Under the pieces are notes generated by a model. The model was not told where the DNA came from. It did no database searches and was given only the letters and a program-made list of their open reading frames with translations. Below are positions 11,454-32,655 of a stretch of 64,000 nt of DNA, one piece after another. Origin of the DNA: a virus; IMG/VR virus record IMGVR_UViG_3300030108_005139, positions 1 through 64,000 of that record. One strand, given 5' to 3'. Position numbers and translations under genes: made by a program. Every line of letters begins with the position of its first letter. The first letter of the stretch is position 1.

Positions 11454-11720
11454 TTATTCTTCCATCGTTTCTGATGGGACAATCAGATAATCTCTAGCCT
11501 TGTTAAGATAGTCTGACGCCAAAGTCAACTTACTCATCCACCAAGAAGGAAGTTCTTCATCAGGACGACCCTCAAGGGCTTGCAGGATTTGTACTGCATC
11601 TTCAGTGGCTGTTTTTAGTTTCCTAATGGCTGACGGGACATCTGTGTGTCCGTCTTCGTTTATGTTTGCCTCAAGTTCTTCCTTGATAATTTGTTTGAGT
11701 TGTGTTTTTGTAATCTTCAT
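11454..11720 (-). CDS. Small type-2 tagged protein, 88 aa
   Basis: The protein starts MKITKTQLKQIIKEELEANI, the type-2 N-terminal tag, followed by an acidic region that includes TDVPSAIRKLKTATEDAVQI and ends in a helix with YLNKARDYLI. Nothing suggests an enzyme. The tag carries I11-I12-K13-E14, where I-K-E fits the [LI]-x-E site. The gene is followed 13 bp later by the tagged ParB-like gene and starts 1 bp after the stop of the preceding tagged gene. Small acidic tagged proteins of this kind could be head-internal proteins comparable to T4 IPI-III. Confidence 0.75.
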   Translation of the reverse strand: MKITKTQLKQIIKEELEANINEDGHTDVPSAIRKLKTATEDAVQILQALEGRPDEELPSWWMSKLTLASDYLNKARDYLIVPSETMEE

Positions 11721-11721
11721 T

Positions 11722-12225
11722 TTATTTTTCCTGCAACTTTGCCAACGTCCTCTCGTATGCTTGGATATATGCTACGCTTTTCGGGAGCATATTTGGATTA
11801 GAGCCTAACTCTATTTGGGCCTTTCTATCGGCCATTATTTTTTGGTCTTTGGGTTTGCCGTCTTTCGCATCTTGTACTCCCTGGAGTCCGGCTTTGTATG
11901 CTATTTCATATGAAGCCCTTTGTATCCAACGCTTACCGGGTTGCGCTGTCGGAGGGGCTGATTGTTCGCCTTTTATCGCATCTTGTATTGCCCGTTCTAT
12001 GTCTTTTTTTGTTTTTTCCGTCTCTTTCCTATAGTATTCCTGATCTTGCTTGTATTCCTCTGGGGTTTTCCTGCGATAAAATGGTTCTCCTCTTGTACTC
12101 CAGGATCTTCCAGTAGAGCCGTATTTGACCAGTTGATCGTCGCGGTATGTATCATATTCCTCTTCACTGAGAAGTTGTAGTTCCTCTAAGATAATCTGTT
12201 TGAGTTGTTGTTTTGTAATCTTCAT
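11722..12225 (-). CDS. Type-2 tagged protein, 167 aa
   Basis: It begins MKITKQQLKQIILEELQLLS, with I-L-E as the possible protease site. The body is charged and helical, with a Tyr/Arg/Glu-rich stretch (TYRDDQLVKYGSTGRSWSTR) and a region EEYKQDQEYYRKETEKTKKD, then a segment with AYKAGLQGVQDAKDGKPKDQ. No known domain is recognised. AGGAGAT lies upstream of the ATG and the gene sits between two other tagged genes, all in the same direction. It is probably head-internal by the tag argument. Function is unknown. Confidence 0.75.
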   Translation of the reverse strand: MKITKQQLKQIILEELQLLSEEEYDTYRDDQLVKYGSTGRSWSTRGEPFYRRKTPEEYKQDQEYYRKETEKTKKDIERAIQDAIKGEQSAPPTAQPGKRWIQRASYEIAYKAGLQGVQDAKDGKPKDQKIMADRKAQIELGSNPNMLPKSVAYIQAYERTLAKLQEK

Positions 12226-12239
12226 ATTAATCTCCTATC

Positions 12240-12623
12240 CTAATCCACATCGCCCAGTCGAAGTTCCTCGTCATCGCCGAGATCAAACGCCGGTGTGGGT
12301 GAGTCTTTCGCTACCATATCACCAATATGATCCTTAATCTTAGATATCATACTGTAGGCATCAGCAGCCATTCGGTGAATTTCATTTAGAGCTTCTATTC
12401 TCCTCTCGACCTCGGACTCGGAGTCTCCACCATATAAATCAACTTGTTCTCCAGACTCCATTGAGTCTGGTTGGGTTATCTCCTCGATGTCCTGAAGATG
12501 TTTAGTGATTGTTTCAAGATCAGTGAGTAAGTTCTCGTCATCTCCTTTGTATTCCTCTTCCTCTAAGCTTCTTGCAAGTTCTTCCTTAATGATCTGTTTG
12601 AGTTGTGATTTCGTAATCTTCAT
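12240..12623 (-). CDS. Type-2 tagged acidic protein, 127 aa
   Basis: I choose ATG 12623, which gives MKITKSQLKQIIKEELARSL, because AAGGAG lies 6 nt upstream and the previous gene stops two bases before; the longer ORF that starts at 12656 lies mostly within that gene. The body is very acidic, with DLETITKHLQDIEEITQPDS and a C-terminal DLGDDEELRLGDVD. The tag DNA is nearly identical to that of the next gene upstream (12625-12888), differing only at third codon positions over the first 14 codons. No enzymatic motif is seen. Confidence 0.75.
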   Translation of the reverse strand: MKITKSQLKQIIKEELARSLEEEEYKGDDENLLTDLETITKHLQDIEEITQPDSMESGEQVDLYGGDSESEVERRIEALNEIHRMAADAYSMISKIKDHIGDMVAKDSPTPAFDLGDDEELRLGDVD

Positions 12624-12624
12624 T

Positions 12625-12888
12625 TTAATCTCCTTTCCTTGCAAGAGACTGATCATCGTGAATTATTTTATCAAGATCGGCTGCAAGGGGTGAGCCGACC
12701 CCTTGTGCGAGGCCATAATAATCTTCAATAGCTCGCATCATAACTTCGCGTTTGGCGTCATCGAGATTGGTTGGTTTTACAACTGTGAACTTCCCAACGG
12801 GCCTTTTTTCCCACTCAATGTCGCCTTCTTGGATTCTACCAAGTTCTTCTTTGATAATCTGTTTGAGTTGTGATTTCGTAATCTTCAT
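12625..12888 (-). CDS. Type-2 tagged protein, 87 aa
   Basis: The sequence starts MKITKSQLKQIIKEELGRIQ and continues through EWEKRPVGKFTVVKPTNLDD to a helical end, with DYYGLAQGVGSPLAADLDKI. It is the shortest of the local type-2 tagged proteins. The ATG is 2 bp downstream of the stop of the 194-aa Cys-rich gene, and AGGAAAAT precedes it. The near-identity of its tag DNA to that of the next gene suggests a recent duplication or gene conversion of the tag alone, because the cargo parts are unrelated. Confidence 0.75.
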   Translation of the reverse strand: MKITKSQLKQIIKEELGRIQEGDIEWEKRPVGKFTVVKPTNLDDAKREVMMRAIEDYYGLAQGVGSPLAADLDKIIHDDQSLARKGD

Positions 12889-16125: not shown

Positions 16126-16662
16126 TCAATCCTTCTTTTTAGATTTTTTGCCCCACTTCTTACCTTTCCCTTTCGTTCCACAGGCTGCTGGGGTTGGCCG
16201 ACAAGCTGGATATTTTGAACGCTTTTCACCTTTTGATCTACCACAGGCTTTGCACTTCTTTCTTCCAGTCTTTGGATCCTTTCGGCAGGTATTGCAATCT
16301 ACCCAACCTTTACTTCCGCCTCCCCCAGCGCGGCTAAACCACCCGTGGAGCCCAGACTTTTTCTCTTTTGAGTAGTCAGTCCGTGCTTTCTTTTTTTTTT
16401 CGTCTAGACAAGCTTCAATTTCTTCATCGATAATACGATACAAGTCTTCCTTGACACCTTTCCAGATCTCTCCTCTGCGACATCTTACAACAGCGCCAGA
16501 GGCATATGCAGAAGGCCACACATCGTATTTGCGCTTGGCAATGCGTGTACAGCGATCATCTTTTTTCTTTTTAGCCTTCTTCTTCTTTTTCTTCTTTTTT
16601 TTCTTCTTCTCATCTAAGAAGGCTTCAATTTCTTCATCAATAATTTTTTCAATATTATCCAT
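16126..16662 (-). CDS. Lysine-rich protein with duplicated acidic motif and DUF5872-like region
   Basis: The 178 residues contain a near-repeat: IIDEEIEAFLDEKKKK at 7-22 and IIDEEIEACLDEKKKK at 77-92. Each could carry its own I-D-E or L-D-E site. After the first is a lysine run (about 19-34), then RIAKRKYDVWPSAYASGAVV at 40-59, resembling the DUF5872-type module as I remember it. After the second is GLHGWFSRAGGGGSKGWVDC, four CxxC-like cysteine positions, and a Lys/Gly-rich basic tail. It looks like two tagged units fused end to end, possibly DNA-binding. The lysine run is T/C-rich on the plus strand and could be prone to slippage. Confidence 0.7.
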   Translation of the reverse strand: MDNIEKIIDEEIEAFLDEKKKKKKKKKKKAKKKKDDRCTRIAKRKYDVWPSAYASGAVVRCRRGEIWKGVKEDLYRIIDEEIEACLDEKKKKARTDYSKEKKSGLHGWFSRAGGGGSKGWVDCNTCRKDPKTGRKKCKACGRSKGEKRSKYPACRPTPAACGTKGKGKKWGKKSKKKD

Positions 16663-16664
16663 AA

Positions 16665-17072
16665 TTATTTATTCCCTGGAACATAATGAATTCCAAAAGC
16701 GTTGCTCAATGCTCTTGACAGCCCTTCAGGATTGTCGTGATTTTCTTTGACGAGTTCCTTTATTCTTCTTTCTTTATTTAGTTTGTTACTCACCAAATCA
16801 TCTTCCAATTGTTCATCAAGTTGTTCCATAACTTCCTGATGAACACGAATAATCTCATCTCTTTGGGCAATCTCGTTAGCGTGTGATTCATTAAGGGTTT
16901 CTATTTGCTCTTCATAAGATTTATTTCTTGTCCTCAACAAGTCTCTAGCCACATCAGATCTCCTACTAAAAAGGGCCGCCAAAGCAAGAACAGCGATCAG
17001 GGGAACATACCAGTGGTTTTTAATCCACACCCAAGATCGCTGCAAGAAATGCTTGACTGCCAGCCAAGTCAT
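16665..17072 (-). CDS. Spanin-like membrane protein, 135 aa
   Basis: I place the start at ATG 17072, overlapping the TGA of the holin-like gene as ATGA; the longer ORF upstream would lie inside that gene. A single membrane helix is at about residues 21-37 (WYVPLIAVLALAALFS), preceded by a basic N-terminus and followed by a long coiled coil (about 50-110). This N-in, C-out, helical arrangement matches an inner-membrane spanin (Rz type), which fuses inner and outer membranes at lysis. No partner outer-membrane spanin gene is seen nested here. The C-terminus NPEGLSRALSNAFGIHYVPG is distinctive. Confidence 0.7.
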   Translation of the reverse strand: MTWLAVKHFLQRSWVWIKNHWYVPLIAVLALAALFSRRSDVARDLLRTRNKSYEEQIETLNESHANEIAQRDEIIRVHQEVMEQLDEQLEDDLVSNKLNKERRIKELVKENHDNPEGLSRALSNAFGIHYVPGNK

Positions 17073-17260
17073 TTGCCGTGTTTCCAAGTCGCGGCTAAGT
17101 CCGCAAATCCTTGAATACCTACATATCCAATCGTAATTGCTGTCCATTGCTCATTATTAATAAAGCCCAAACATAAAAATGTTGAGGCAGTGATCCAAGA
17201 TAAAAGTTTACGACTGATTATTTTATTGAGCCCTTTATCTAGTGCTTGTTTCATACTCAT
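17069..17260 (-). CDS. Holin-like membrane protein, 63 aa
   Basis: The start is ATG 17260 because AAGGAGG stands 4 nt upstream; a longer ORF that starts at 17338 is in the frame of another tiny gene's codons and lacks this site. The sequence is MSMKQALDKGLNKIISRKLL then SWITASTFLCLGFI and AITIGYVGIQGFADLAATW, giving two membrane-spanning segments separated by a short polar loop, with basic residues before the first. Small two-helix proteins next to a spanin are typical class II holins. Holin activity is inferred from topology and neighbours, not from homology. An endolysin gene is not in the same cluster; the spike amidase at 56811-58235 is not a substitute. Confidence 0.6.
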   Translation of the reverse strand: MSMKQALDKGLNKIISRKLLSWITASTFLCLGFINNEQWTAITIGYVGIQGFADLAATWKHGK

Positions 17261-17276: not shown

Positions 17277-17354
17277 TTACGAGCAACAGCATCCGTCACA
17301 GGCACAGTCACAATCGCACCTACACTGCCTACATCCATTTACAATCTTATTCAT
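17277..17354 (-). CDS. 25-aa peptide with nine cysteines, hidden small gene
   Basis: On the minus strand ATG 17354 opens MNKIVNGCRQCRCDCDCACD then GCCCS and TAA at 17279. Nine of 25 residues are cysteine, in alternating CxCxC and CCC patterns. The ATG overlaps the stop of the previous tagged gene (AATGAATAAG) and AAGGAGG lies 9 nt upstream. The stop is 16 bp before the holin-like start. It fills the only gap in the lysis region. Such peptides could bind zinc, copper or an iron-sulfur cluster, like a tiny metallothionein. It is too short for routine gene calling, and chance is possible, but the ribosome site and fit support it. Confidence 0.6.
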   Translation of the reverse strand: MNKIVNGCRQCRCDCDCACDGCCCS

Positions 17355-17616
17355 TTGACAAATCCTCCTTTTCTTCCTCCAGAGCAAACCCATAAATATG
17401 CTTCATTATAATCTTGCTCATAGGTTCTTTTAACATTATTGCATTCGCGGCTTGTTGAGCCAGCCCTCGATCTACCTTTGTAACATCCTCAATAACGTCA
17501 GCAATTTTGCCTGCAATCTGATCCCTGTAATCAGTTGGATCAGAGGCATACTCGTGTTTTTCCTCTTCAAGAGTCTCTAAAATAACTTGTTTTAATTGGG
17601 ATTTAGTGAACTTCAT
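17347..17616 (-). CDS. Type-2 tagged acidic protein, 89 aa
   Basis: It begins MKFTKSQLKQVILETLEEEK, a variant of the type-2 tag ending I-L-E at positions 12-14. The rest is helical and acidic (IAGKIADVIEDVTKVDRGLA, then IIMKHIYGFALEEEKEDLS). AAGGAG is placed 7 nt before the ATG. Being in front of the lysis genes, not in the main tagged block, it shows that tags are scattered. The first residues of the tag are more diverged at DNA level than in the 11.7-12.9 kb group. No enzyme motif is visible. Confidence 0.75.
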   Translation of the reverse strand: MKFTKSQLKQVILETLEEEKHEYASDPTDYRDQIAGKIADVIEDVTKVDRGLAQQAANAIMLKEPMSKIIMKHIYGFALEEEKEDLSNE

Positions 17617-17640: not shown

Positions 17641-17651
17641 AATAAATAGTC
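17641..17651 (-). promoter_or_regulatory. ACTATTTAT motif upstream of a tagged gene
   Basis: The minus strand reads GACTATTTATT, overlapping the TAG stop of the nuclease gene and lying 25 bp before the ATG at 17616. It repeats the motif found at 9960, 22142 and, with one change, 27423. It could serve as a promoter element or mRNA processing site for the tagged gene and lysis genes downstream. Confidence 0.35.
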
Positions 17652-20600
17652 TACTGATTTACAAATGCAAGACCATTTTTTTTGTCAATTGTGATTTGTT
17701 GGTCAACACAATCTTTAAGAGAGTCAAGGTGGGAGATGAGTATCACGGTCTTAAAGTAAGATTTGACAAGATCAAGAATACGAATAAAACTTTCCATATT
17801 CTCTTCGTCTAGTGCTGTGCCTGGTTCATCAAGGATAAAAATGTCTCCTTGTGGCAGTGACGAAACTGTCAATAAAGACAAACGAATAGCAATTGCAGCA
17901 ATAGACTTTTCGCTTCCACTGCCCATTGCAATTGGTCTAGGATCGTACTTTGGATGTTTGATTAAAATATTTAATCTGTTTTCGTCGTTTTCAAAGTACA
18001 CTTCAAAGTCAACAATATTTGCAAGAATCTTAGCAATCTCATTGTTGATTACTGGCAGCCTCTTCTTAATGATATCGTATGCAATACCGTTACTGTGCAT
18101 ACACCGCATAAACAGATCGTATGCTGAGAACTCTTCGCGAAAGTCAGCCAGTTCCTGCTTTTGTTCGTTGATTGAAGCAAGCTTCTGCTCAAGTGAGCCG
18201 TGTAGCTTGTAAAGTTCCAATATGTCTTTTTCACAAGATTCCAGTTGCTCTTGTGACTTTTGAATTAGTTGATCACCTTGATCTCGCTCAGAGATTAACT
18301 CCTCTAAGTTTTCAATTGCTTCTTTGTTTTTTTCGTACTCTTGAATCTTTTGTTCTAGAAGAGAAATTTGCTCCTCGGCCTTTGAAATCTCGTGCTTTCT
18401 TTTTTCTAGCGAGAGTTCAACTTTAACAATTTGGTTTTTTATCTCTCCCTGTTTTGTTTTTAACTTCTCGTATTTGTCCAGGTAGCTCTGTATCTGTTCA
18501 GGGTTAAGTTCCTCAATAACCACTTCAGTCTTTTCTTTTTTGAATAGAAAATCCTGTACTTGTTGGTGGATGTCGTCTTTTTTATCCAATGCATCATAAG
18601 CATCCTTAATAAACTTGCAGTGACTAAATTCTGAACCACAAGGAACTTCCTTTAGAAGACAAGACTTGTTGTTGATATCCTTTTGTTTTCTTTCAAGAGT
18701 ATCTAGATCTTCTTGAATGTGCGATAGGATTTCTTCAAGGTTGTTTAAATTTTCTTGCCTGTTCTTATATAAATCGATATCAAAGTCATCAACAAATTTG
18801 CTTATCTCCATCAAAACTTCTTGTCTGTTTGATAGTTTTTCTTCTTCTTGGGCTTGAAGGAGAACTAGGTCGTTATAAGAATCTTTCAAATTAATCAATG
18901 ATTTATTGATATCTTTGACGTTAATAATCTCTGCTGGAATTGAATCTATTTTGCCGGTAAGATACGCGACCTTTTCTTGAAGAGAGGAGATATCCTCTCT
19001 AATCTTCTCGCACTCTCTTTCCTTCTGCTTTGTTGTGTTTTCATTTTCTTCTAGTTCATATTCGGCTTCTTTAATTTCTTGATCAAATTCTTTCCCTTCA
19101 AGTCTTTTTAATGCACCCTTTAAATCAGAGGCATCGTCTTTTGCCATCTTGAACTTCTTGTCAAAGATATGAAGATCTAAAAACTTTGCTAAGATTTCCT
19201 TTCGCTTCGTTGAACCCTCGTTGATAAACTGGAGAGAATCAAGCTGAGAAGCCATAGAGGTTAACAAGAAATCATCTAATGAGCCAAAAACACGACGAAT
19301 GTTTTTGTCTGTTTCTATTCTTGTTAAGCCGTTTAGTGGCGTATTAGTTTGCGTAACTTCGTTGTATTTGTTGAATTCAACGTTTGTCTTTGCCTCTGTC
19401 GAGGTTTTGCCTTTTAATTTCCTAACGTACTTCTCTAAATCTCTTTGGATGACATAGTGCTCGTTACCAATCTCTATTTCAACTAAACCACTGGCTGTGT
19501 TTTCGTTTTGATTAATAACGTTGACATTCTTGCGCTCGTTTTTAGAAGTCGAATTAAAGATTGTAAAAAGAAGCGAATCGATGATTGAACTCTTCCCAGA
19601 GTAGTTTTTACCAAAAATTCCAACAGTTCCACGTAGTTTTTCAAAATCGATAGCATTGCTTTCTCCGTAGTTAAAAAGGTTATCCCACGACAATCGTTTT
19701 AGTTTCCAGTTGATGTTTCTGGACACATCTTCGTTTTCTTCTGCGAGCTTGTTATATTTTTTATTTAACTTAAAAACTTTTTCTAGGATCTCATCGCTTA
19801 CCTCGTAATCTTTAAGGTAATCTTCCATTAGCTCTTCTTGGACTTCTATATCACGGAGGTCTTCCTTGTCAAAAAGAACGCTTAAATCCTCACCAACATT
19901 TCCCTTATCTGTTGCTCTATTGAGGAATGATATGGACTCTGGTCTAAAACGAACCTTTGCAACATCAACCGCTTTGCGAAGCTTGTTGAGAGACAAGTTG
20001 TTGTTAGAAATAACACGAAGACGAACGCCTTCGGGTATATCAATGTCTTTTGGAAATTTGCCCTTTGAATTGAGTTCTATTGTGATGAAGGGCTTTGGAT
20101 TGTTTAGACGAATATGCTTGCAGGTATATTCATTTTTATTTTTTAAATCCCACAACAAATACCCCTTATCGTTGGTTTCACCAAAGTTTTGTTGAACTAA
20201 GGAGCCTGCATATCTAACCTTACCTTTGTCGTCCATAATTTGATTTGTCTTATGGATATCGCCAAGAAAGATGTAATCGTGTGCTTCAAAACATTCTGTT
20301 GAGTCATCGCTCTCGTTAATAACCCAACCAGCATCTGTTTCAGAACCAGCAATCGCTCCGTGATATAACCCAATATTTACTGCATTTGGATCACTTGGTG
20401 TTTGCCAATTGTCTGGATCAAAGATTGATAGACTATTAAATTTAAAGTCCAAGCCATCTTCTGTGTTAATTAAAACCTCTCTTGAGTCCCTAATCAAATG
20501 GAGATCAGGGTGCTCAAGTGCCTCAACCACTGGAGTCACAGCATCTTGACGTGCCATATTCCTTAGATTGCCGTCGTGGTTTCCAAGTATAATGTAAGTG

Positions 20601-20815
20601 GGAGCAATGTCAGCAAGGTTACGAAACAAGTCCGTTGCCATCTTGACAAACTCTGGTGAGATTTGTGTTTTTGTGTGTGCAATATCACCGCACAAAACAA
20701 TGCAGTCTACATCTTGTTCTTTTAGTGATTCGTAGAACTGATTAAAAACTTCGTTGTATTCATAATGATATTTTAAATTTCGTATGTGGATGTCTGCTGT
20801 ATGTGCTATTCTCAT
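17651..20815 (-). CDS. Single-chain SbcD-SbcC (Mre11-Rad50, T4 gp47-gp46) nuclease
   Basis: The complex trims DNA ends for recombination-dependent replication and degrades host DNA. Residues 1 to about 340 form the phosphoesterase (SbcD/gp47): D8 and H10, GD at 43-44, GNHD at 78-81, YHG (H152) and GDIH (H188). Residues about 370-1054 form the SMC-type ATPase (SbcC/gp46): Walker A GKNYSGKSS at 402-410, long coiled coils, a CGSEFSHC (CX6C) pair near the apex, signature GSGSEKS at 965, and Walker B IFILDEPG (D996, E997). In T4 and bacteria these are two proteins; here the linker (about 340-370) joins them in frame. A sigma70-type promoter lies directly upstream. Confidence 0.92.
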   Translation of the reverse strand: MRIAHTADIHIRNLKYHYEYNEVFNQFYESLKEQDVDCIVLCGDIAHTKTQISPEFVKMATDLFRNLADIAPTYIILGNHDGNLRNMARQDAVTPVVEALEHPDLHLIRDSREVLINTEDGLDFKFNSLSIFDPDNWQTPSDPNAVNIGLYHGAIAGSETDAGWVINESDDSTECFEAHDYIFLGDIHKTNQIMDDKGKVRYAGSLVQQNFGETNDKGYLLWDLKNKNEYTCKHIRLNNPKPFITIELNSKGKFPKDIDIPEGVRLRVISNNNLSLNKLRKAVDVAKVRFRPESISFLNRATDKGNVGEDLSVLFDKEDLRDIEVQEELMEDYLKDYEVSDEILEKVFKLNKKYNKLAEENEDVSRNINWKLKRLSWDNLFNYGESNAIDFEKLRGTVGIFGKNYSGKSSIIDSLLFTIFNSTSKNERKNVNVINQNENTASGLVEIEIGNEHYVIQRDLEKYVRKLKGKTSTEAKTNVEFNKYNEVTQTNTPLNGLTRIETDKNIRRVFGSLDDFLLTSMASQLDSLQFINEGSTKRKEILAKFLDLHIFDKKFKMAKDDASDLKGALKRLEGKEFDQEIKEAEYELEENENTTKQKERECEKIREDISSLQEKVAYLTGKIDSIPAEIINVKDINKSLINLKDSYNDLVLLQAQEEEKLSNRQEVLMEISKFVDDFDIDLYKNRQENLNNLEEILSHIQEDLDTLERKQKDINNKSCLLKEVPCGSEFSHCKFIKDAYDALDKKDDIHQQVQDFLFKKEKTEVVIEELNPEQIQSYLDKYEKLKTKQGEIKNQIVKVELSLEKRKHEISKAEEQISLLEQKIQEYEKNKEAIENLEELISERDQGDQLIQKSQEQLESCEKDILELYKLHGSLEQKLASINEQKQELADFREEFSAYDLFMRCMHSNGIAYDIIKKRLPVINNEIAKILANIVDFEVYFENDENRLNILIKHPKYDPRPIAMGSGSEKSIAAIAIRLSLLTVSSLPQGDIFILDEPGTALDEENMESFIRILDLVKSYFKTVILISHLDSLKDCVDQQITIDKKNGLAFVNQ

Positions 20816-20846: not shown

Positions 20847-20875
20847 ATTATACAATAGTGTTTTAGGTTAGTCAA
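20847..20875 (-). promoter_or_regulatory. Sigma70-type promoter for the SbcD-SbcC gene
   Basis: The minus strand has TTGACT (20875-20870), a 17-bp spacer and TATAAT (20852-20847). The -10 is preceded by TG. The -35 lies over the end of the cysteine synthase gene. Transcription would start near 20840, giving a leader of about 25 nt to the ATG at 20815. Host RNA polymerase could read it, so the nuclease is likely early or middle. A CCATT-aa-AATGG inverted repeat at 20826-20837 lies in the leader and might be an operator. Confidence 0.75.
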
Positions 20876-21800
20876 GTGGATTTGTATTTTTTTTCAGATA
20901 TTCGCGATCCGCCCACACACTACCAAGGTACCTCTCGCCTCGATCACAAAGCATAGTAACAACAGTTCCCGTAATGTTATTTTCTTCTATCCACTTTTCT
21001 GCTGCCAATATATTGGCTCCGGCTGATATTCCTACTAGTAAGCCGTTTTCAACTGCTAGTCTTCTTGCTCGCTCTTTAGCATCCTCAGTCTTTATTCTAA
21101 TAATTTCGTCAAACAGAGAAGTATCAGCTAAAAAATCTTCTCCGTCGCTAATGCCTTGAATTCCGTGCTGATCGCTTGGCTCGTCAGGCTTGACCATTAT
21201 AATTTTTGTGTTTAAGCTCGGGGTTTTTTGTATGAAGCTATGAACACCCATTATTGTTCCACCTGTGCCTACACCCGACACAAATCCAGCCCACGCAGTA
21301 TTACCTGGAATTTGCTCGTATATCTCAGGGGCTGTTTTGTGCATATGGCACTTTATATTGTCGCTATTTTCAAATTGACACGGAGACCAGCTGTCATCGA
21401 TACAGGCTAAGATTTCGTTTCTTTTCTGTATCGCAGCATCGAAATCACTAGCAGCAACCTCCAATATGTCGGCTCCAAATGCACGCATCATCTGCTTTCT
21501 CTCTTCTGACATATTTGAAGGCATTACTATCTGGACTGGGTTTCCCATTGCAGCACCAAGTGCCGAGAGTGAGATGCCGGTATTGCCGCTTGTTGCTTCA
21601 ACTAAAAGAGTAGTTGACTTTATTTCTGAGTTTTTTATCGCTCCTTCAACAACATACGATATCATTCTGTCTTTAACAGACCCTGTAGGGTTTGCTGTTT
21701 CAAGTTTTCCATACAGATTTTTTGAGATCTTAACTAAAGGTGTATTGCCTACAGCTTTTAAGAAATTTAATGCTGGGCTTTCTTTAAAACCTGCAGGCAT
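20868..21800 (-). CDS. Cysteine synthase (O-acetylserine sulfhydrylase family)
   Basis: This PLP enzyme makes cysteine from O-acetylserine and sulfide. At 310 residues it has the normal family length. PLP-binding lysine K43 lies in NPTGSVKDR, the phosphate-binding loop in SGNTG (71-75), and a GVGTGGT loop near residue 176. NTPLVKI near the start is the usual first conserved block. A related function (cystathionine beta-synthase core) cannot be excluded. GGAGG is 7 nt upstream. It follows primase and a type-2 tagged gene in the same direction and ends just before the recombination nuclease, so it is a metabolic gene carried by the phage, not host flank. It may boost sulfur amino acid supply. 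Confidence 0.92.
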   Translation of the reverse strand: MPAGFKESPALNFLKAVGNTPLVKISKNLYGKLETANPTGSVKDRMISYVVEGAIKNSEIKSTTLLVEATSGNTGISLSALGAAMGNPVQIVMPSNMSEERKQMMRAFGADILEVAASDFDAAIQKRNEILACIDDSWSPCQFENSDNIKCHMHKTAPEIYEQIPGNTAWAGFVSGVGTGGTIMGVHSFIQKTPSLNTKIIMVKPDEPSDQHGIQGISDGEDFLADTSLFDEIIRIKTEDAKERARRLAVENGLLVGISAGANILAAEKWIEENNITGTVVTMLCDRGERYLGSVWADREYLKKNTNPLD

Positions 21801-21829: not shown

Positions 21830-22108
21830 TTATTCCTTGTAAAAAGTCATTGTACCCTTGGGGGTAATAGAAAAGAAACTGCGATCAAGCAAAGCTTCTA
21901 AGCGATTTAAACCCATAATCTGTATCTGGCGTACATCATCGGCATCCATTTTATTTATAATTTCTTCTACATCAACATCTACTCCATCGGGAAAACCCTT
22001 AGATGCACGAGAAACTGCGTCCGTAATGCCTGCCAATCTATCTTTTGGTGATTGAGAACTCAACTCCTCTAAAATCATTTTCTTTAATTGTGACCTGGTA
22101 ATTTTCAT
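21830..22108 (-). CDS. Type-2 tagged protein, 92 aa
   Basis: The sequence starts MKITRSQLKKMILEELSSQS, with I-L-E as the possible protease site. The body is a helical repeat with DVDVEEIINKMDADDVRQIQ and NRLEALLDRSFFSI. GAGGTG lies upstream. It is isolated from the main tagged block, between primase and cysteine synthase, so the tag is not confined to one operon. The function is unknown. It is a small acidic protein like the others of this group. Confidence 0.75.
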   Translation of the reverse strand: MKITRSQLKKMILEELSSQSPKDRLAGITDAVSRASKGFPDGVDVDVEEIINKMDADDVRQIQIMGLNRLEALLDRSFFSITPKGTMTFYKE

Positions 22109-22117
22109 ATTGCACCT

Positions 22118-23053
22118 CTACAATGAACTAAGCGTTCGATACAATAAATAGTTGTCTGAGTTTATAAGCGTTGCTTTTTTCTTCAGACGTAAAAAATTTG
22201 CTTTGGGCATCGCACCAACATCTTCGTATGCCGTTGTATCTATCTTGTAGATTTCAATCCCATACTCCAAAAACTTCTCTATTAACCTGTTTTCTTTTTT
22301 CTTTGCGTCTCGATCAAATGCGATATAGACGGGAGTGTCGTTGCGAACTATCTCCTGAAACAAGGGCGACTCCTCATTTAAGGTCGAACCAAGCACAGGA
22401 ACTGCGTTTGGCCCTGCAATAATCGCATCAAAGACACCTTCTACAATTGTAAGATCTTCATCAAAGTCAAGATAAAGATGATTGAATACAATGTCACGAC
22501 TGGCTTGTGGGTTCATATATTTGTAACCGCCCCTCTTATATGATCTGGCTACAAAATAATTTGCTCGACCACAAAGAGAAAACGATGGTACAACAACACG
22601 ACCACCAAACTTACCTGTTGGGCAATAGCCAATTTTCCATTGAAGAATATCTTTTTTTGTTATTCCCCTATCATAAAGATATTTCAGTGGAATACGACTG
22701 GCGTGATTGTCGGTACCATTTGCCAAAGAGACAAATTCATTTGGAAGATCAACAAACTGTTCTGTTTCTTCCTCTTTGTTTTCTGAGAAAAGATCATAGA
22801 ACTCATTAATATCAACCCTGTCCTCTGTCTCGTCCCAAGCTTGTCTATCTTTGAAGCTACCAAAGCGACGAACAACACGACGTATAGATCTGCCTGAATA
22901 ATCGCAGATCCAACACTTAAAGACATTTTTTTCTAAATTAACGGAAAACTTACGTTTATGATGGTCACACTTTGGACACTTGAATAAGTATTCGTCATTC
23001 GTCCGACTGCAATAACCCAGAACATCTCTTAGGATTTCAATCCTTCTTTCCAA
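22118..23053 (-). CDS. DNA primase, zinc finger plus TOPRIM
   Basis: It makes RNA primers for lagging-strand synthesis. Residues 26-50 form the zinc finger (CPKC at 26-29, CWIC at 47-50). The TOPRIM region has LTIVEGVFDAIIAG (about residues 203-216) with the conserved glutamate and IAFDRDAKKKE (about 250-260) with the DxD. At 311 residues it is close in length to T4 gp61-type primases without a helicase domain; the helicase must lie elsewhere. Its start overlaps the resolvase end by 25 bp, as expected for one transcription unit. The last codons overlap a possible regulatory motif. Confidence 0.9.
   Translation of the reverse strand: MERRIEILRDVLGYCSRTNDEYLFKCPKCDHHKRKFSVNLEKNVFKCWICDYSGRSIRRVVRRFGSFKDRQAWDETEDRVDINEFYDLFSENKEEETEQFVDLPNEFVSLANGTDNHASRIPLKYLYDRGITKKDILQWKIGYCPTGKFGGRVVVPSFSLCGRANYFVARSYKRGGYKYMNPQASRDIVFNHLYLDFDEDLTIVEGVFDAIIAGPNAVPVLGSTLNEESPLFQEIVRNDTPVYIAFDRDAKKKENRLIEKFLEYGIEIYKIDTTAYEDVGAMPKANFLRLKKKATLINSDNYLLYRTLSSL
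22142..22152 (-). promoter_or_regulatory. ACTATTTAT motif upstream of a tagged gene
   Basis: The minus strand reads ACTATTTATTG inside the last codons of the primase gene, 34 bp before the ATG at 22108. It matches the motif at 9960 and 17641. Being within coding sequence it may be chance, but its placement before a tagged start is the same. Confidence 0.3.
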
Positions 23054-23556
23054 AGTCTATACCCCGCTTTCGCTATAATCCAACTGTCGGCACGATCATA
23101 CGAACCTGGCTTTGGATTTCCGTGACTAGTATATTCAATTTTGTTACCATTGTCAAGAAAATGTTGAAGGGCGATCTCTTTTGCTTTGGTTCCCCTGGGG
23201 ACTTTTAGTTCGCAAAGCTTTCTTGCCTGTGTGGCTGTGATATACTCTGGGATCATATTTAAATCATTGTAGCAAATCCACGACACAATACCATTAAACC
23301 TTTGTAGTGTAGCCATCGTTTTTGCCGTCGAGCCACCACTATTAAAGAACGTAAAAGGCTGTTCGATGTAAATCTTTGTAAACGGATATTGAAGTCCGAA
23401 TAAGTTCTTTCTTATAAACTGGGCTTTGTGGAAAAGTAAAGGAAACTTGTTCTTATTTCTTGTATCCCAGGACTCACAGAGAAGAGTATTTCCCTGCCTG
23501 TCAAGTATAGTAACACCTGTGATACTCGTTGAAAGATCTAAACCAAGTATAACCAT
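23029..23556 (-). CDS. RuvC-like Holliday junction resolvase
   Basis: The 175-residue protein has the RNase H-like fold of RuvC resolvases: VILGLDLSTSITGVTI near the start (first acidic residue D6), IYIEQPFTF (second acidic residue) and a C-terminal YDRADSWIIAKAG (third acidic site). RuvC-type enzymes cut branched DNA, which phages need before packaging and during recombination. T4 uses an unrelated resolvase (gp49), so a RuvC-type enzyme is a difference from T4. It is the first gene of the replication and recombination group. Confidence 0.85.
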   Translation of the reverse strand: MVILGLDLSTSITGVTILDRQGNTLLCESWDTRNKNKFPLLFHKAQFIRKNLFGLQYPFTKIYIEQPFTFFNSGGSTAKTMATLQRFNGIVSWICYNDLNMIPEYITATQARKLCELKVPRGTKAKEIALQHFLDNGNKIEYTSHGNPKPGSYDRADSWIIAKAGYRLWKEGLKS

Positions 23557-27476: not shown

Positions 27477-30400
27477 TTATTCAAACGACTCTTCAGTTGG
27501 CCTATTCAAATCTTCGTTATCTTTATCTGTATGAATCTGTCTAAATTTAAAATTGATGTCTATTTTTTTACCAGTCAGTTCCGAAGTTATCCTAAGTTTA
27601 TATTTTCTTCCCCAAAGAGTTCTTGCTTCCGCTGCCTTAGAGCCTAAATTCTTGTCTAGTAAGTATGATTCTAAATCCTGTTCATCAATAAACTGTTGAT
27701 TGAACGCCTCTTGGATTTGTGAGGGTTTAATTTTTATATATCTCCTCATATGCTTACTATAACTATCTGGAACAACTGGGAACACGTATTCTTCTATCGT
27801 TGGAAAAATTGAATTACCAGTATCCACCATCTCTACTTGTAATACCCCTGTTGGATTAGACGGATTATTATGTATATCAACCACTCTAAATGTGTACCAA
27901 TATTTTTTGTTTGGAACAATATCATCAACAAAAGAGTTTGCTGTTGTTACCACCTGATCTCTCCAAGTTCCTTCCTCCTGGTTCATCCGTCGAGCAGTGT
28001 TGTCTAAGATTATTTTTCTTGCATCAGAAAAATCTCCATAACTTGATGGCGGGAAGTCCAATCTATAAACTTCAAAAAGTTCTGGATAATCGTCATTTAA
28101 AAACAATACATCAAAGTCTTCAATATTGTTCTCATTAAGATCTGATTCTGTGGCCACTCGTCCACCATCAAGCGTTGATTGTTCCAAGCCTTGCTCAAGA
28201 ATCATATCTCTAAATTTGTCAACATCACTTGGAAGAACAATTTTTGGTTTATCAACATATTGACCCTGACCTGAATTCATCTGCACCAAAATTTTATCTT
28301 TTACAGAACGATACGGTATTAAATCAACATTTGGCGGTGTTGGGGGGTTGCCAATAATTTTAACCTCTGGTGGTTGATATCCAGCTGAGAAAATACTTGC
28401 TTCAACTATAACTGGGTGTGGCATATTGTTAACAGCGAACGTGTAGCTCGTAGGGGCGGGTTCCTTTCCACCACTACCGATGGTTCCTCCAGAGCGAAAA
28501 GGTCTATAAAATGGTGCTCGTCCTGCATCATAATCCGCTCGTTCTTGAGAAATTAACATCTCCATTCGTTGAACAATTATTGTTTCTATTCTATCTGCAG
28601 TTATAACATTTTGATATTCAATTTCAAGCTCTCTTATGATTGGACCTGGAGGGCTGAAGAAGTCTCTTCCATAGCGCTCCGTTAATTGTTCGTATCTAAC
28701 ATAGAGTCGATTTTTAGCGATTGCCAATAACCTAGCGAGCGATCTCGGATCATCAAACGCACCTGTAATCGACAGACCAAAGGGTGCTATTGGCCCAGCT
28801 GTCGTGTATCGACCCAATCCCTCAAGTTCCGCTTGTTCAGACAATAACAAAACCATATCCAAAGTATAGCGTCTAGCTCCAGGTATAATCCCTGGCGATG
28901 TTCCAATTGGATTTTGAACAATTAATAATGATGCCAGTTGGTCTCTAATTTCATCAAGAAGTTGATCAGTGCTGTAATCATAGCGTAGTTCAGTATCTGG
29001 CGTCTCAGTACTTAAGTACCTTTCTTGAAGCTCTGGTGATAACTCCACCCACGGAATCGCTTCAAACTCTCGATCAGGGGGCAAGGGTATAGTCGCTGGA
29101 TCCGGTTGCTCGATTTCTTCATACCAATATTCATTTCCAAAAACAAGATAATAACCATAGATATTATATCTATATCCAACACCATAACGGACTTGTGCGT
29201 CAATGTGTGAAAAACCACTATTTAAAAGAGTTGCGGGCAAAACAAAATTTTGTGTCACCTGGTCTGTTTCGGCATCGACTTTCTCTATCCTATAAAAAAG
29301 GGCCTCAGAATAAGCTAACTGACCATTAACTATATCTTTATATCTTCTAAAAATCCCACCAATAATGTCAGCAAGTTCTTCTGTTTCTGGCGTTGCTCCT
29401 AGAACATCTAGTGTCTCATCAGACTCCCTTCCAACTCTTTCTAAATATAAATTTATAAACGCCAAAATTACACCAAGGTGAGTTTGTATATCCACAGTGC
29501 TCAAACAGTTGGACCAGTTTTCTTCACCGGGTACTCTCATAATGTCTGGACCTAAAGAGTCTGATGATGGGATACCACTAATTGGAAATGTTTTATTAAA
29601 ATCCATCATAGTATCTGTTGGGGAGTTCTTGCCCCAAGTCTTTATCTCATCAAATAAGAGTGGACCAATCTCTGGTACACGGGTTAACAAACCTTCAAAC
29701 ACATCAGGATTTACAACCATTTCTTCAATTTCAGGCGTACAATAAATCTTAAACCACTCACGAAAATCCCAAACACGCTCTATTTTTGTTATGAGTTCTT
29801 GCCGACTCTCCATAACATTGATGCTTAAATCACTAGACGGCATCTTTGTTGATGAGGGACTACTTCCAAGTGGAGTCATACTACCATAATCTGATAGCAA
29901 TGACGCTATCCTAGATTTGTCCATATACCCACTTAGTGAACCATTAATGTTGGCTTGTACAAAGATATTTTTTGAACTTCGAGAGAAAGTATCAGAGGCT
30001 ATATTAGATATAGGATCGTAGTAAATTCCACCACCATCTGTGGTAAGGATTGATGCCCTTTCCATAGCTTCAGCAAAAAAACTTACAAATTCACGATAAC
30101 CCTCAAAATTAAATCTAGTAGTTACGTGCATCGGAGCAACACTAACCACCCCTCCAGGTGCATACTTGCTACCAGTTTCCTTGTAAGTTTCTTTATAAAA
30201 GTTACTAAAAATTAAATTTCTATACTCCAAACTTAATTTTTCAAGACCCTCCATATCGTTTGTTTGTTGAGCTATAGAAACAGTCTTATTCCACAAAGAT
30301 ATATATGGATGTTCCCTAGAGTACCTAAAGCGATTGAAATAATTTTCCCAATCAGGTGTGAATCGTTCCGGTAAACCAAGCGAATCCATCCTACGGTCTA

Positions 30401-32654
30401 AAGATATTAATTTACGAAACTCTGAAATGTTTGTTTTTGCAAAATCTACAACATAAAGATTAGGAAACACTGGTTCGTATATCAAATCCAATTCACTAGT
30501 TAATTGTTCAAACTCAGGTGCGAATGAGCCATTATAATGTCCTGTTAGTTTAACTAAGTCATCACATACAGGAATTTCAAAAGTGTAATCATAATAGCGC
30601 CTTGGTACCAATACAGATCGTGCTGCTTCAGAGGAGTCACCGTCACCAGTTCCATTTCTTAAATCAGCAGGATCATATGCGTAAGGATCCTTTATTTTTA
30701 AAAATGGTTCAAGATAATCATCCACTATGTTAACAAATCTAAGTCCCAATGGGCCTTCAGACTCAGAAACAAGATAATCTATTGCATTGAATCTCTTAAC
30801 GGTAACCTCTGTTCTTTTCCAATTACCCAATTTAATGTCTTGTGTATCATCAAATATTCTACGAACCGCTGCATCACGCTCAGAGGGCGAACTTCCAGCT
30901 GATATTAAGCCTAGTTCGAATAAGCGCTCGGGATCTCCCACATATGTCTCTGGACCAAAATTGCTGATATAGATCAAAGGAATCATATTTTTAGTCAACT
31001 CCTGACTAAGCAATGATTCACGATATCTTACAGCACCATCCACCAAACTAGTAATTGGCTCCCCCGGTATAGGTCTTGCAACCATATGCCCAGCAGCTAA
31101 TTCTGAAACAACATTAAGAAAGGCTGAGAAATCATCGGTTAAAACATCTTCGTTAGTTGAAATGGTCGGAAAATATCCAAACATTGGATTAAGGGTTTCT
31201 GACGAAATAATTTCGCCGCCTGCCCTTATTGGATCCGCACTAAGTGGCAGATCCCAACCATAAGCAAACCACATCCTCAAAGACATTCTCCTGATTAAAT
31301 CTTGCACCAAAAAGCCACTTTGAATTGTTTGCTCAATTGTATCTTCGTATCGATGAATAACAGGATCATCTCTCATTACGGCTTGATTATATTCAAGGAA
31401 AAAATTAGCTGCAGAGGGGTTACTTAAAACAGTCCTAGCATCTGGCAAGAGAAAGACTGAATCTCTCTTAACAATAGCCTTGTGTTTAGGATATTTAGGA
31501 ATGCCAGGGGTTTCATCTTTTCCGCTTGAATCTGGTTTCGGATCTGCAACATTGTCGCCATTTAGCAACCCTACTGCTGGATTTGGTCCATCCGATGCCA
31601 CCGACATAGGGGAGCCGCTTTCACCCCCCACAGTAGTGGCCACACCAACAACTCCACAATCACTAACATCATATGTACCTTCGGCTTGTCTATGTGCGAT
31701 TTCGTCCATAATATCAACTAATCGCAACCTCATTTCTGTCATTTCTGACGCAGAAGCAGTGTTCTGTTCAATTAAACTCGTAATCTGAGCACGAAGTTCA
31801 TTTTTTTCGGTTGTGGTGAGGCCAGATTCCAGAAGCCTTGCTTGAAGTTCAGCAAGCACTGCTGACCGGGATTCTGACCCAGCAACCGCACTTGTTATGT
31901 TATATTCAAGAGTTAATCTTTCTCCTCTAAGCCTACAATCTGACAAACTCCCGATGCCATCATCTTCTGGTGAGATGTCCTCTGCACAGGGCTCTTCCGA
32001 CCACATATTGTCAGATATTCTTCGCGCTCGCTCCTCCTTATAGTCTGTTAAACCTCTTTCTAAGAAAGTTTTTCTTTCTTGTAGCACTTCTATTTCAGCT
32101 GTGATTTCAGTTAGTTCTGCTATAGCCTCGCTGCGTTCAGAAGTTCCCGATTCAAGAGTAGGGATGAATGCTTGTAATGAATTTCTCTTGGCAAGGAGGG
32201 TGATAAGGTTCTCTTCCAACCTAGCAAGACTAGCCTCATCACCCAAAATCACCTCAGACAATTCACAGTTATCGATCTCGTCTAAGTAAGAGTCCTCTAC
32301 AATTAAAGATTCTTCTCTTCTTTGATCTGCTTCCTCTTTTACTCTTTGTAGTGTCATTGTTAAGAAACGGACTACCAGATCATCGCCGGATTCGATGGCT
32401 ACATAATAAGCACTAGCCGCTTCTAATGCTGCCGTCAGGGTACCTACACCTTCAAAAATTGCATCATCAGGAATTCCATCCAAAATCGCAGCGCTTGGCA
32501 TTGGAGGTGGTAGCTCACCAACAATATACCTCCAAGGCCCCCACACATACTCGGTACCTCTCAAGCTATCTGCAAGTTCAGAATCACTAGAACTGGCGAT
32601 ACCTGGTAGGGCAACGAGTGCAGCGACAAGCATTATAACAAATAAAATCATCAT
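27477..32654 (-). CDS. Very large structural protein with hydrophobic N-terminus
   Basis: I place the start at ATG 32654 (MMILFVIMLVAALVALPGIA then SSSDSE), 2 bp after the stop of the upstream gene, not at an earlier ATG inside that gene. This gives 1725 residues. The first 20 residues form a hydrophobic segment followed by AS-SS, as in a Sec signal peptide, though with no positive charge before it. Residues about 100-330 are coiled-coil-like, including LAELQARLLESGLTTTEK. Later parts hold no domain I know. The C-terminus is basic with EARTLWGRKYKLRI. It lies in the tail module, so a virion protein is likely. Confidence 0.75.
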   Translation of the reverse strand: MMILFVIMLVAALVALPGIASSSDSELADSLRGTEYVWGPWRYIVGELPPPMPSAAILDGIPDDAIFEGVGTLTAALEAASAYYVAIESGDDLVVRFLTMTLQRVKEEADQRREESLIVEDSYLDEIDNCELSEVILGDEASLARLEENLITLLAKRNSLQAFIPTLESGTSERSEAIAELTEITAEIEVLQERKTFLERGLTDYKEERARRISDNMWSEEPCAEDISPEDDGIGSLSDCRLRGERLTLEYNITSAVAGSESRSAVLAELQARLLESGLTTTEKNELRAQITSLIEQNTASASEMTEMRLRLVDIMDEIAHRQAEGTYDVSDCGVVGVATTVGGESGSPMSVASDGPNPAVGLLNGDNVADPKPDSSGKDETPGIPKYPKHKAIVKRDSVFLLPDARTVLSNPSAANFFLEYNQAVMRDDPVIHRYEDTIEQTIQSGFLVQDLIRRMSLRMWFAYGWDLPLSADPIRAGGEIISSETLNPMFGYFPTISTNEDVLTDDFSAFLNVVSELAAGHMVARPIPGEPITSLVDGAVRYRESLLSQELTKNMIPLIYISNFGPETYVGDPERLFELGLISAGSSPSERDAAVRRIFDDTQDIKLGNWKRTEVTVKRFNAIDYLVSESEGPLGLRFVNIVDDYLEPFLKIKDPYAYDPADLRNGTGDGDSSEAARSVLVPRRYYDYTFEIPVCDDLVKLTGHYNGSFAPEFEQLTSELDLIYEPVFPNLYVVDFAKTNISEFRKLISLDRRMDSLGLPERFTPDWENYFNRFRYSREHPYISLWNKTVSIAQQTNDMEGLEKLSLEYRNLIFSNFYKETYKETGSKYAPGGVVSVAPMHVTTRFNFEGYREFVSFFAEAMERASILTTDGGGIYYDPISNIASDTFSRSSKNIFVQANINGSLSGYMDKSRIASLLSDYGSMTPLGSSPSSTKMPSSDLSINVMESRQELITKIERVWDFREWFKIYCTPEIEEMVVNPDVFEGLLTRVPEIGPLLFDEIKTWGKNSPTDTMMDFNKTFPISGIPSSDSLGPDIMRVPGEENWSNCLSTVDIQTHLGVILAFINLYLERVGRESDETLDVLGATPETEELADIIGGIFRRYKDIVNGQLAYSEALFYRIEKVDAETDQVTQNFVLPATLLNSGFSHIDAQVRYGVGYRYNIYGYYLVFGNEYWYEEIEQPDPATIPLPPDREFEAIPWVELSPELQERYLSTETPDTELRYDYSTDQLLDEIRDQLASLLIVQNPIGTSPGIIPGARRYTLDMVLLLSEQAELEGLGRYTTAGPIAPFGLSITGAFDDPRSLARLLAIAKNRLYVRYEQLTERYGRDFFSPPGPIIRELEIEYQNVITADRIETIIVQRMEMLISQERADYDAGRAPFYRPFRSGGTIGSGGKEPAPTSYTFAVNNMPHPVIVEASIFSAGYQPPEVKIIGNPPTPPNVDLIPYRSVKDKILVQMNSGQGQYVDKPKIVLPSDVDKFRDMILEQGLEQSTLDGGRVATESDLNENNIEDFDVLFLNDDYPELFEVYRLDFPPSSYGDFSDARKIILDNTARRMNQEEGTWRDQVVTTANSFVDDIVPNKKYWYTFRVVDIHNNPSNPTGVLQVEMVDTGNSIFPTIEEYVFPVVPDSYSKHMRRYIKIKPSQIQEAFNQQFIDEQDLESYLLDKNLGSKAAEARTLWGRKYKLRITSELTGKKIDINFKFRQIHTDKDNEDLNRPTEESFE

Positions 32655-32655
32655 T

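What the first reader, a model, noticed from the sequence alone, without database searches (positions are those of the whole stretch)
17651..20815. SbcD and SbcC (gp47 and gp46) fused in one polypeptide
All metal-site and ATPase motifs are in a single 1054-residue frame, while T4 and bacterial versions are two subunits. The fusion sets 1:1 stoichiometry and shortens the linker. The CX6C near the apex differs from the CxxC hook.
Basis: partly seen in the sequence, partly recalled or inferred. Interest (0 to 1): 0.66.

Follow-up and report, generated by a model that had tools for sequence, protein, structure and literature searches.

The report
Phage fused Mre11–Rad50 with altered hook
A marine phage makes its DNA-end-processing nuclease and its partner motor as one fused protein, a fusion type published in 2011, but most members of its large phage family carry a differently spaced pair of cysteines at the tip of the arm where relatives carry the standard zinc hook.

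Summary
ORF 17651-20815 (-) is one uninterrupted 1054-codon frame: an Mre11/SbcD nuclease (residues 1-~300), the Mre11 helix-loop-helix (323-361), a short linker, then a complete Rad50/SbcC (370-1054). It is no assembly error: 160 of 180 related or comparison loci carry the gene as one full-length frame, no close relative breaks at residues 340-370, and the 78.9-kb record has no separate SbcC or SbcD. The fusion is not new. Yoshida, Claverie and Ogata (2011) described it from Mimivirus R555 and argued that its aquatic homologs belong largely to phages. The 1:1 argument is weak, because two-subunit MR is already M2R2.

The CX6C remark is the better part. The two cysteines lie exactly at the predicted coiled-coil apex in a conserved PCGxxFPxCKFIxDA motif. 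Of 126 non-redundant relatives, 77 have CX6C, 11 CX7C, 36 CXXC and 2 neither; the types interchange at least 12 times on a tree of the globular parts.

In a related branch the fused gene is split again inside the nuclease domain just after GDIH (30 of 88 loci), often with 4-nt stop/start overlaps; three loci carry an endonuclease-like ORF exactly at the split. I found no published report of this.

The parts
17651..20815 (-). fused Mre11-Rad50 (SbcD-SbcC, gp47-gp46) gene, 1054 codons
   Evidence: single open frame; Pfam/PHROG/NCBIfam matches to both partners; AF2 model
19916..20815 (-). Mre11/SbcD phosphoesterase and capping domain, residues 1-300
   Evidence: VIA-align Z 24.8 to S. aureus SbcD 7dog over residues 1-301
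20786..20794 (-). nuclease motif I DxH (D8, H10)
   Evidence: 125 of 126 relatives, the remaining one gapped
20675..20689 (-). nuclease motif II GDIAH (D44, H47)
20573..20581 (-). nuclease motif III NHD (79-81)
20360..20362 (-). nuclease motif IV H152
   Evidence: 126 of 126
20252..20260 (-). nuclease motif V DIH (D186, H188); Asp where P. furiosus Mre11 has His206, as in Mimivirus R555
   Evidence: 126 of 126; R555 comparison in PMC3175470. Just 3' of this is the point where relatives are split
19733..19849 (-). helix-loop-helix 323-361, the Mre11 Rad50-binding element
   Evidence: AF2 helices H323-337 and H341-361; assignment by position is inference
19709..19732 (-). short inter-domain linker, residues 362-369
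19586..19612 (-). Walker A GKNYSGKSS (402-410)
18647..19171 (-). ascending coiled-coil arm, residues 549-723
   Evidence: AF2 helices; fast-evolving
18599..18643 (-). apex hook PCGSEFSHCKFIKDA (725-739) with the CX6C pair C726/C733
   Evidence: apex loop in the model; most conserved 15-residue window of the coiled coil among CX6C rows; CXXC in 36 of 126 relatives at the same position
18098..18616 (-). descending coiled-coil arm, residues 734-906
17903..17923 (-). ABC signature GSGSEKS (965-971)
17804..17842 (-). Walker B and D-loop IFILDEPGTALDE (992-1004)
22118..23053 (-). DnaG-like primase upstream in the same operon-like run
   Evidence: PHROG 47, 1.7e-36; upstream of the fusion in most relatives, median gap 233 nt
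23029..23556 (-). RuvC-like Holliday junction resolvase
   Evidence: PHROG 159, 2.4e-8; upstream match counted 97 times in relatives
16665..17147 (-). small ORF with a hydrophobic stretch downstream, conserved neighbour
   Evidence: downstream match counted 135 times in relatives; weak Rz-spanin-like PHROG match

Best explanation
A functional single-chain Mre11-Rad50 (SbcDC) recombination nuclease of a tailed marine phage. Two copies dimerise through the nuclease domains at the base, through ATP-sandwiched Rad50 heads, and through the coiled-coil apex, giving the usual M2R2 clamp made from two chains instead of four. ATP-driven head engagement gates Mn-dependent cutting and resection of DNA ends, to feed the phage's recombination-dependent replication and repair, as gp46/gp47 do in T4. 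Shown here: one open frame, intact and nearly invariant catalytic residues, domain order, helix-loop-helix and apex loop in a model, and a primase/RuvC neighbourhood. Inferred: dimer architecture, activity, role in replication, and metal binding by the CX6C apex. The fusion most likely keeps the partners together in synthesis and in horizontal transfer; it does not change nominal stoichiometry.
For: Frame, domains and motifs. Predicted heads and nuclease superpose on solved Mre11 and Rad50 (Z 20-25; Foldseek). One full-length frame in 160 of 180 loci, with catalytic residues nearly invariant in 126 non-redundant sequences. No separate SbcC or SbcD in the record. Conserved RuvC-primase-MR order. 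Best viral structure matches are full-length giant-virus and phage proteins of the same architecture. Published precedent including the same His206-to-Asp substitution.
Against: No biochemical data for this family. The AF2 model is a monomer with pTM 0.53 and low confidence around Walker A (401-407) and 522-528, so relative domain placement is not established. Zinc binding by CX6C is untested. Other phages do well with split genes, so the benefit of fusion is not demonstrated.
Confidence: 0.88

Rival explanations
1. The fusion is an artefact: a sequencing or assembly error removed a stop or frameshift between two genes.
For: Single metagenomic record; reads not available.
Against: 160 of 180 loci, mostly 45-70% identical and from many metagenomes, read through in one frame; the isolate Microcystis phage Mel-JY01 also has a 1066-aa fused gene.
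Confidence: 0.01
2. The apex cysteines no longer work as an inter-chain zinc hook: CX6C forms an intramolecular disulfide or a local structural element, and apex contact is lost or hydrophobic.
For: CX6C spacing differs from the canonical CXXC; two relatives (L139, L147) have neither motif; the monomer model cannot show metal geometry.
Against: C-x6/7-C and C-x2-C alternate at the same apex position and 124 of 126 relatives keep one or the other pair; the 15-residue apex motif is far more conserved than the arms (0.82 vs ~2.5 bits; the two Cys columns are fixed by the choice of rows, the flanking P, G, F735, I736, D738, A739 are not).
Confidence: 0.25
3. The protein works as an anti-defence or auxiliary nuclease rather than in the phage's own recombination/replication.
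For: Some phage phosphoesterases counter host immunity (PMC12287305, title listed); SMC-like complexes act in defence (PMC10586767, listed).
Against: Full Rad50 architecture and conserved replication/recombination neighbours; SbcC/SbcD described as practically universal in jumbo phages (PMC7824862).
Confidence: 0.06

Closest known systems
Mre11/Rad50 fusion proteins, Mimivirus R555 type (Yoshida, Claverie & Ogata 2011, PMC3175470)
   Same: Same order (Mre11 N-terminal, Rad50 C-terminal), helix-loop-helix and short linker, His at the third GDxxD position, Asp in place of P. furiosus His206; aquatic viral homologs were already attributed largely to phages.
   Different: Shorter chain (1054 aa vs 1351 aa for R555) with about 175 residues per coiled-coil arm; the CX6C apex is not discussed in the parts of the paper read; the R555 sequence itself was not compared here.
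T4 gp47/gp46 and cyanophage homologs (e.g. P-SSM2)
   Same: Same domains and presumed role in recombination-dependent replication.
   Different: Two genes; P-SSM2 and MED4-213 gp46 have a CXXC apex (CPTC).
E. coli SbcC/SbcD and archaeal/eukaryotic Mre11-Rad50
   Same: Fold and catalytic motifs.
   Different: Separate subunits, longer coiled coil, CXXC zinc hook (established knowledge).
Microcystis phage Mel-JY01 'AAA domain containing protein' WWT39521.1
   Same: Full-length fused homolog, 31% identical over the whole chain, primase upstream.
   Different: Hook is CKHC (CXXC) instead of CX6C.
Split NrdA of Aeromonas phage Aeh1 (homing endonuclease mobE; reviewed in PMC2988022)
   Same: Parallel for the relatives' split nuclease domain: an endonuclease gene at a functionally critical site and two polypeptides that must reassemble.
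   Different: Different gene; here most split lineages have no endonuclease gene between the halves, but stop/start overlaps or short gaps.

Membership tests
Mre11/Rad50 (SbcDC) fusion proteins, R555 type | Both partners in one uninterrupted frame, Mre11 first | tested here: met
Mre11/Rad50 (SbcDC) fusion proteins, R555 type | Catalytic metal-site residues of Mre11 present (with the R555-type Asp at the His206 position) | tested here: met
   PMC3175470
Mre11/Rad50 (SbcDC) fusion proteins, R555 type | Both Rad50 ATPase halves with Walker A, signature, Walker B | tested here: met
Mre11/Rad50 (SbcDC) fusion proteins, R555 type | Capping and helix-loop-helix region plus short linker between partners | tested here: met
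   AF2 helices 323-337, 341-361, linker 362-369; a model, not a structure
Mre11/Rad50 (SbcDC) fusion proteins, R555 type | Phylogenetic grouping with Mimivirus R555 | tested here: inconclusive
   Foldseek's best viral matches are giant-virus proteins (Tupanvirus 24% identity); no tree with R555 was made
Rad50 zinc hook | CXXC at the coiled-coil apex | tested here: not met
   CX6C in the window; CXXC in 36 of 126 relatives at the same position
Rad50 zinc hook | Zn-bridged homodimer at the apex | not testable with these tools
   needs metal analysis or a dimer structure
T4 gp46/gp47 (two-subunit phage complex) | Two separate genes | tested here: not met
Active Mre11-Rad50 nuclease | Mn-dependent, ATP-gated nuclease activity | not testable with these tools
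   residues intact only

The most novel reading that the evidence does not exclude
The apex of this phage Rad50 is an interchangeable module. CX6C (or CX7C) is a working alternative to the CXXC zinc hook, and phages swap the two forms by exchanging the coiled-coil tip between otherwise nearly identical genes. In a sister branch, the fused gene has repeatedly been broken again, inside the nuclease domain just after GDIH, into two coupled ORFs whose products must reassemble an Mre11 active site, probably through homing-endonuclease insertion.
Probability: 0.55. Interest if true: 0.6.

Novelty: new variant of a known kind. Interest (0 to 1): 0.42.

Why it matters
The fusion itself only adds to a known class, now shown over hundreds of phage contigs instead of a few partial metagenomic scaffolds. 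Two features are more useful. First, natural exchange of CXXC and CX6-7C at one apex gives matched pairs to test what the Rad50 hook needs chemically. Second, the split nuclease domain in relatives would be a natural two-piece Mre11 and a new case of a gene fused at one boundary and broken at another.

Tried and rejected
Assembly error: rejected. A separate SbcC/SbcD elsewhere in the record: none found. Plasmid homologs: only partial, weak matches. Genome contigs: three hits. L079 (WOR-3 MAG) runs into a masked N stretch, so its apparent truncation is no evidence. L080 ('archaeon' MAG, 6.4-kb contig) may be a misbinned phage contig. Programmed frameshift at the L180 split (GATGAAAAAGGT): rejected as a general explanation because other split loci have ATGA/GTGA/TTGA stop-start overlaps and no slippery run. 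A described intron at the L068 insertion: no Rfam match. One search used a wrongly framed query for the N-terminal half; its split/fused labels are void and were redone. The regex classification was superseded. Near-identity search for the gene in isolate phages: none.

Full report
What is there. The window lies in a 78,890-base IMG/VR virus record. Terminase, portal, baseplate wedge, DnaG-like primase and RuvC-like genes identify a tailed, myovirus-like phage. ORF 17651-20815 (-) encodes 1054 aa without interruption. Pfam, PHROGs and NCBIfam find an SbcD/Mre11 phosphoesterase at the N terminus and an SbcC/Rad50 ATPase over the rest. There is one AAA_23 and one Metallophos match in the whole record, so no separate copy was seen; the record may be a fragment.

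Is it real. In 160 of the 180 loci then held, the gene is one frame covering at least 950 query residues. The other 20 are cut by contig ends, are distant or two-gene comparison phages, or are the special cases below; L069 (1202 aa) and L065 are single-frame but matched only in part. No locus of the close family breaks at residues 340-370. The Microcystis phage Mel-JY01 isolate has a fused 1066-aa homolog, Rhizobium phage RHph_TM61 a fused 959-aa one, and a 735-kb uncultured phage a 1202-aa one.

Structure and motifs. An AlphaFold2 model from 36 sequences (pLDDT 79.5, pTM 0.53, so domain packing is uncertain) shows nuclease plus cap (1-300), helix-loop-helix (323-361), an 8-residue linker, the Rad50 N-lobe (370-548), two coiled-coil arms (549-723 and 734-906) joined by an apex loop, and the C-lobe. 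VIA-align gives Z 24.8 to S. aureus SbcD for 1-301 and Z 24.1 to archaeal Rad50 3av0_B for 368-1054. Metal-site and ATPase residues are nearly invariant in 126 non-redundant relatives. Asp186 stands where P. furiosus has His206, the same change Yoshida et al. reported in R555.

Known or not. Fused Mre11/Rad50 was described in 2011 from Mimivirus R555, with twelve further cases including a Bacillus phage, plasmids, bacteria and eukaryotes, and with abundant aquatic homologs assigned to viruses, probably phages in good part (PMC3175470). The best matches in a library of viral models are Tupanvirus and other giant-virus proteins, Tenacibaculum phages pT24/PTm1 and a Listeria phage.

The hook. C726 and C733 sit in the apex loop in PCGSEFSHCKFIKDA. 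Among 126 relatives the apex is CX6C in 77, CX7C in 11, CXXC in 36 and neither in 2. For CX6C rows the 15-residue motif averages 0.82 bits of entropy against about 2.5 for the arms (the Cys columns are fixed by the choice of rows, the flanking P, G, F, I, D, A are not). The same PCGDxFPTCKFIKDA occurs in the second branch. On a FastTree of the globular parts the CX6-7C and CXXC states need at least 12 changes (some long branches, so approximate). Pairs with different hooks reach 93-98% DNA identity in parts of the flanks (L064/L033) but fall to 31-45% in the three windows at the apex (L064/L033, L064/L059, L020/L035), while pairs sharing a hook keep 51-76% in those same windows. In a 32-row subset the arms group the nine main CXXC rows into one clade (100), whereas the globular tree places the CX6C rows L064 and L020 among them with moderate support. 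This suggests exchange of the coiled-coil tip; faster evolution of the arms alone does not explain the coupling to hook type, but it is not excluded in every pair. Metal binding by CX6C is inference.

A break at another place. In a related branch reached with alignment A2, 30 of 88 loci with both halves (a few outgroup rows included) have the gene split just after GDIH (window residue ~189), inside the phosphoesterase. ORF A is about 215-225 aa and ends in a conserved ~29-residue tail (REVEIEIDEDDLxKYPGAEVIE-like); ORF B starts ATG/GTG/TTG with M(S/G)KKIKIKxKKPWIAYPG-like sequence, often by a 4-nt ATGA/GTGA/TTGA overlap. Split and unsplit states change at least 10 times on an IQ-TREE quick tree. 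In L317 and L356 an ORF of 290-306 aa with weak PvuRts1I-like/Vsr matches, and in L068 one with a TnsA-like match, lies exactly between A and B. This resembles the homing-endonuclease split of nrdA in phage Aeh1 (PMC2988022). The ORF A model keeps the phosphoesterase fold with a small extra helix at 202-207. Text searches found no earlier report, within an open-access library only. The window gene is not split.

Neighbourhood. RuvC-like, primase, fusion and a small downstream ORF recur in relatives, which supports a role in recombination and replication. The cysteine-synthase-like gene between primase and fusion had no match in the relatives' stored flanks.

Verdict. An ordinary and very probably functional member of a published fusion class, with a non-standard but conserved apex motif. 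The wider family holds two observations worth testing: hook exchange and the split nuclease domain.

Noticed in passing
L249:1456-4712, L302, L304, L306, L308, L311, L217, L180, L190 and others (30 loci): The fused gene is split inside the Mre11 nuclease domain right after GDIH, often with 4-nt stop/start overlaps and a conserved ~29-aa tail on the N-terminal piece.
   Followed up: yes
L317, L356, L068 between ORF A and ORF B: 290-306 aa ORFs with N-terminal Cys motifs and Vsr-, PvuRts1I- or TnsA-like nuclease matches sit exactly at the split point, like homing endonucleases.
   Followed up: partly
window 20868-21800 (-): A cysteine-synthase-like PLP enzyme (TIGR01136 7e-77, below the curated cut-off) lies between the primase and the fusion; no match in the stored flanks of the relatives.
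   Followed up: partly
window 21830-22108, 17347-17616, 12625-12888, 12240-12623, 11722-12225, 11454-11720 (all -): Six small ORFs share the N-terminal motif MKITKSQLKQIIKEEL and then diverge; possibly a common targeting or prohead-processing signal.
   Followed up: no
window 37017-47249, 27477-32717, 51018-55895 (-): Very large ORFs of 3410, 1746 and 1625 aa; the latter two had no PHROG match, the first was not searched.
   Followed up: no
window 16126-16662 (-): ORF with a long poly-lysine stretch and a CxxC/CxxC region.
   Followed up: no
L139, L147: Two close neighbours of the window protein on the tree have neither CXXC nor CX6C at the apex (GCKC instead).
   Followed up: no
L080 (NZCT01000014.1, 'archaeon' MAG): A 35% identical full-length fused homolog with a CX6C hook in a MAG labelled archaeon; may be a misbinned phage contig.
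   Followed up: no
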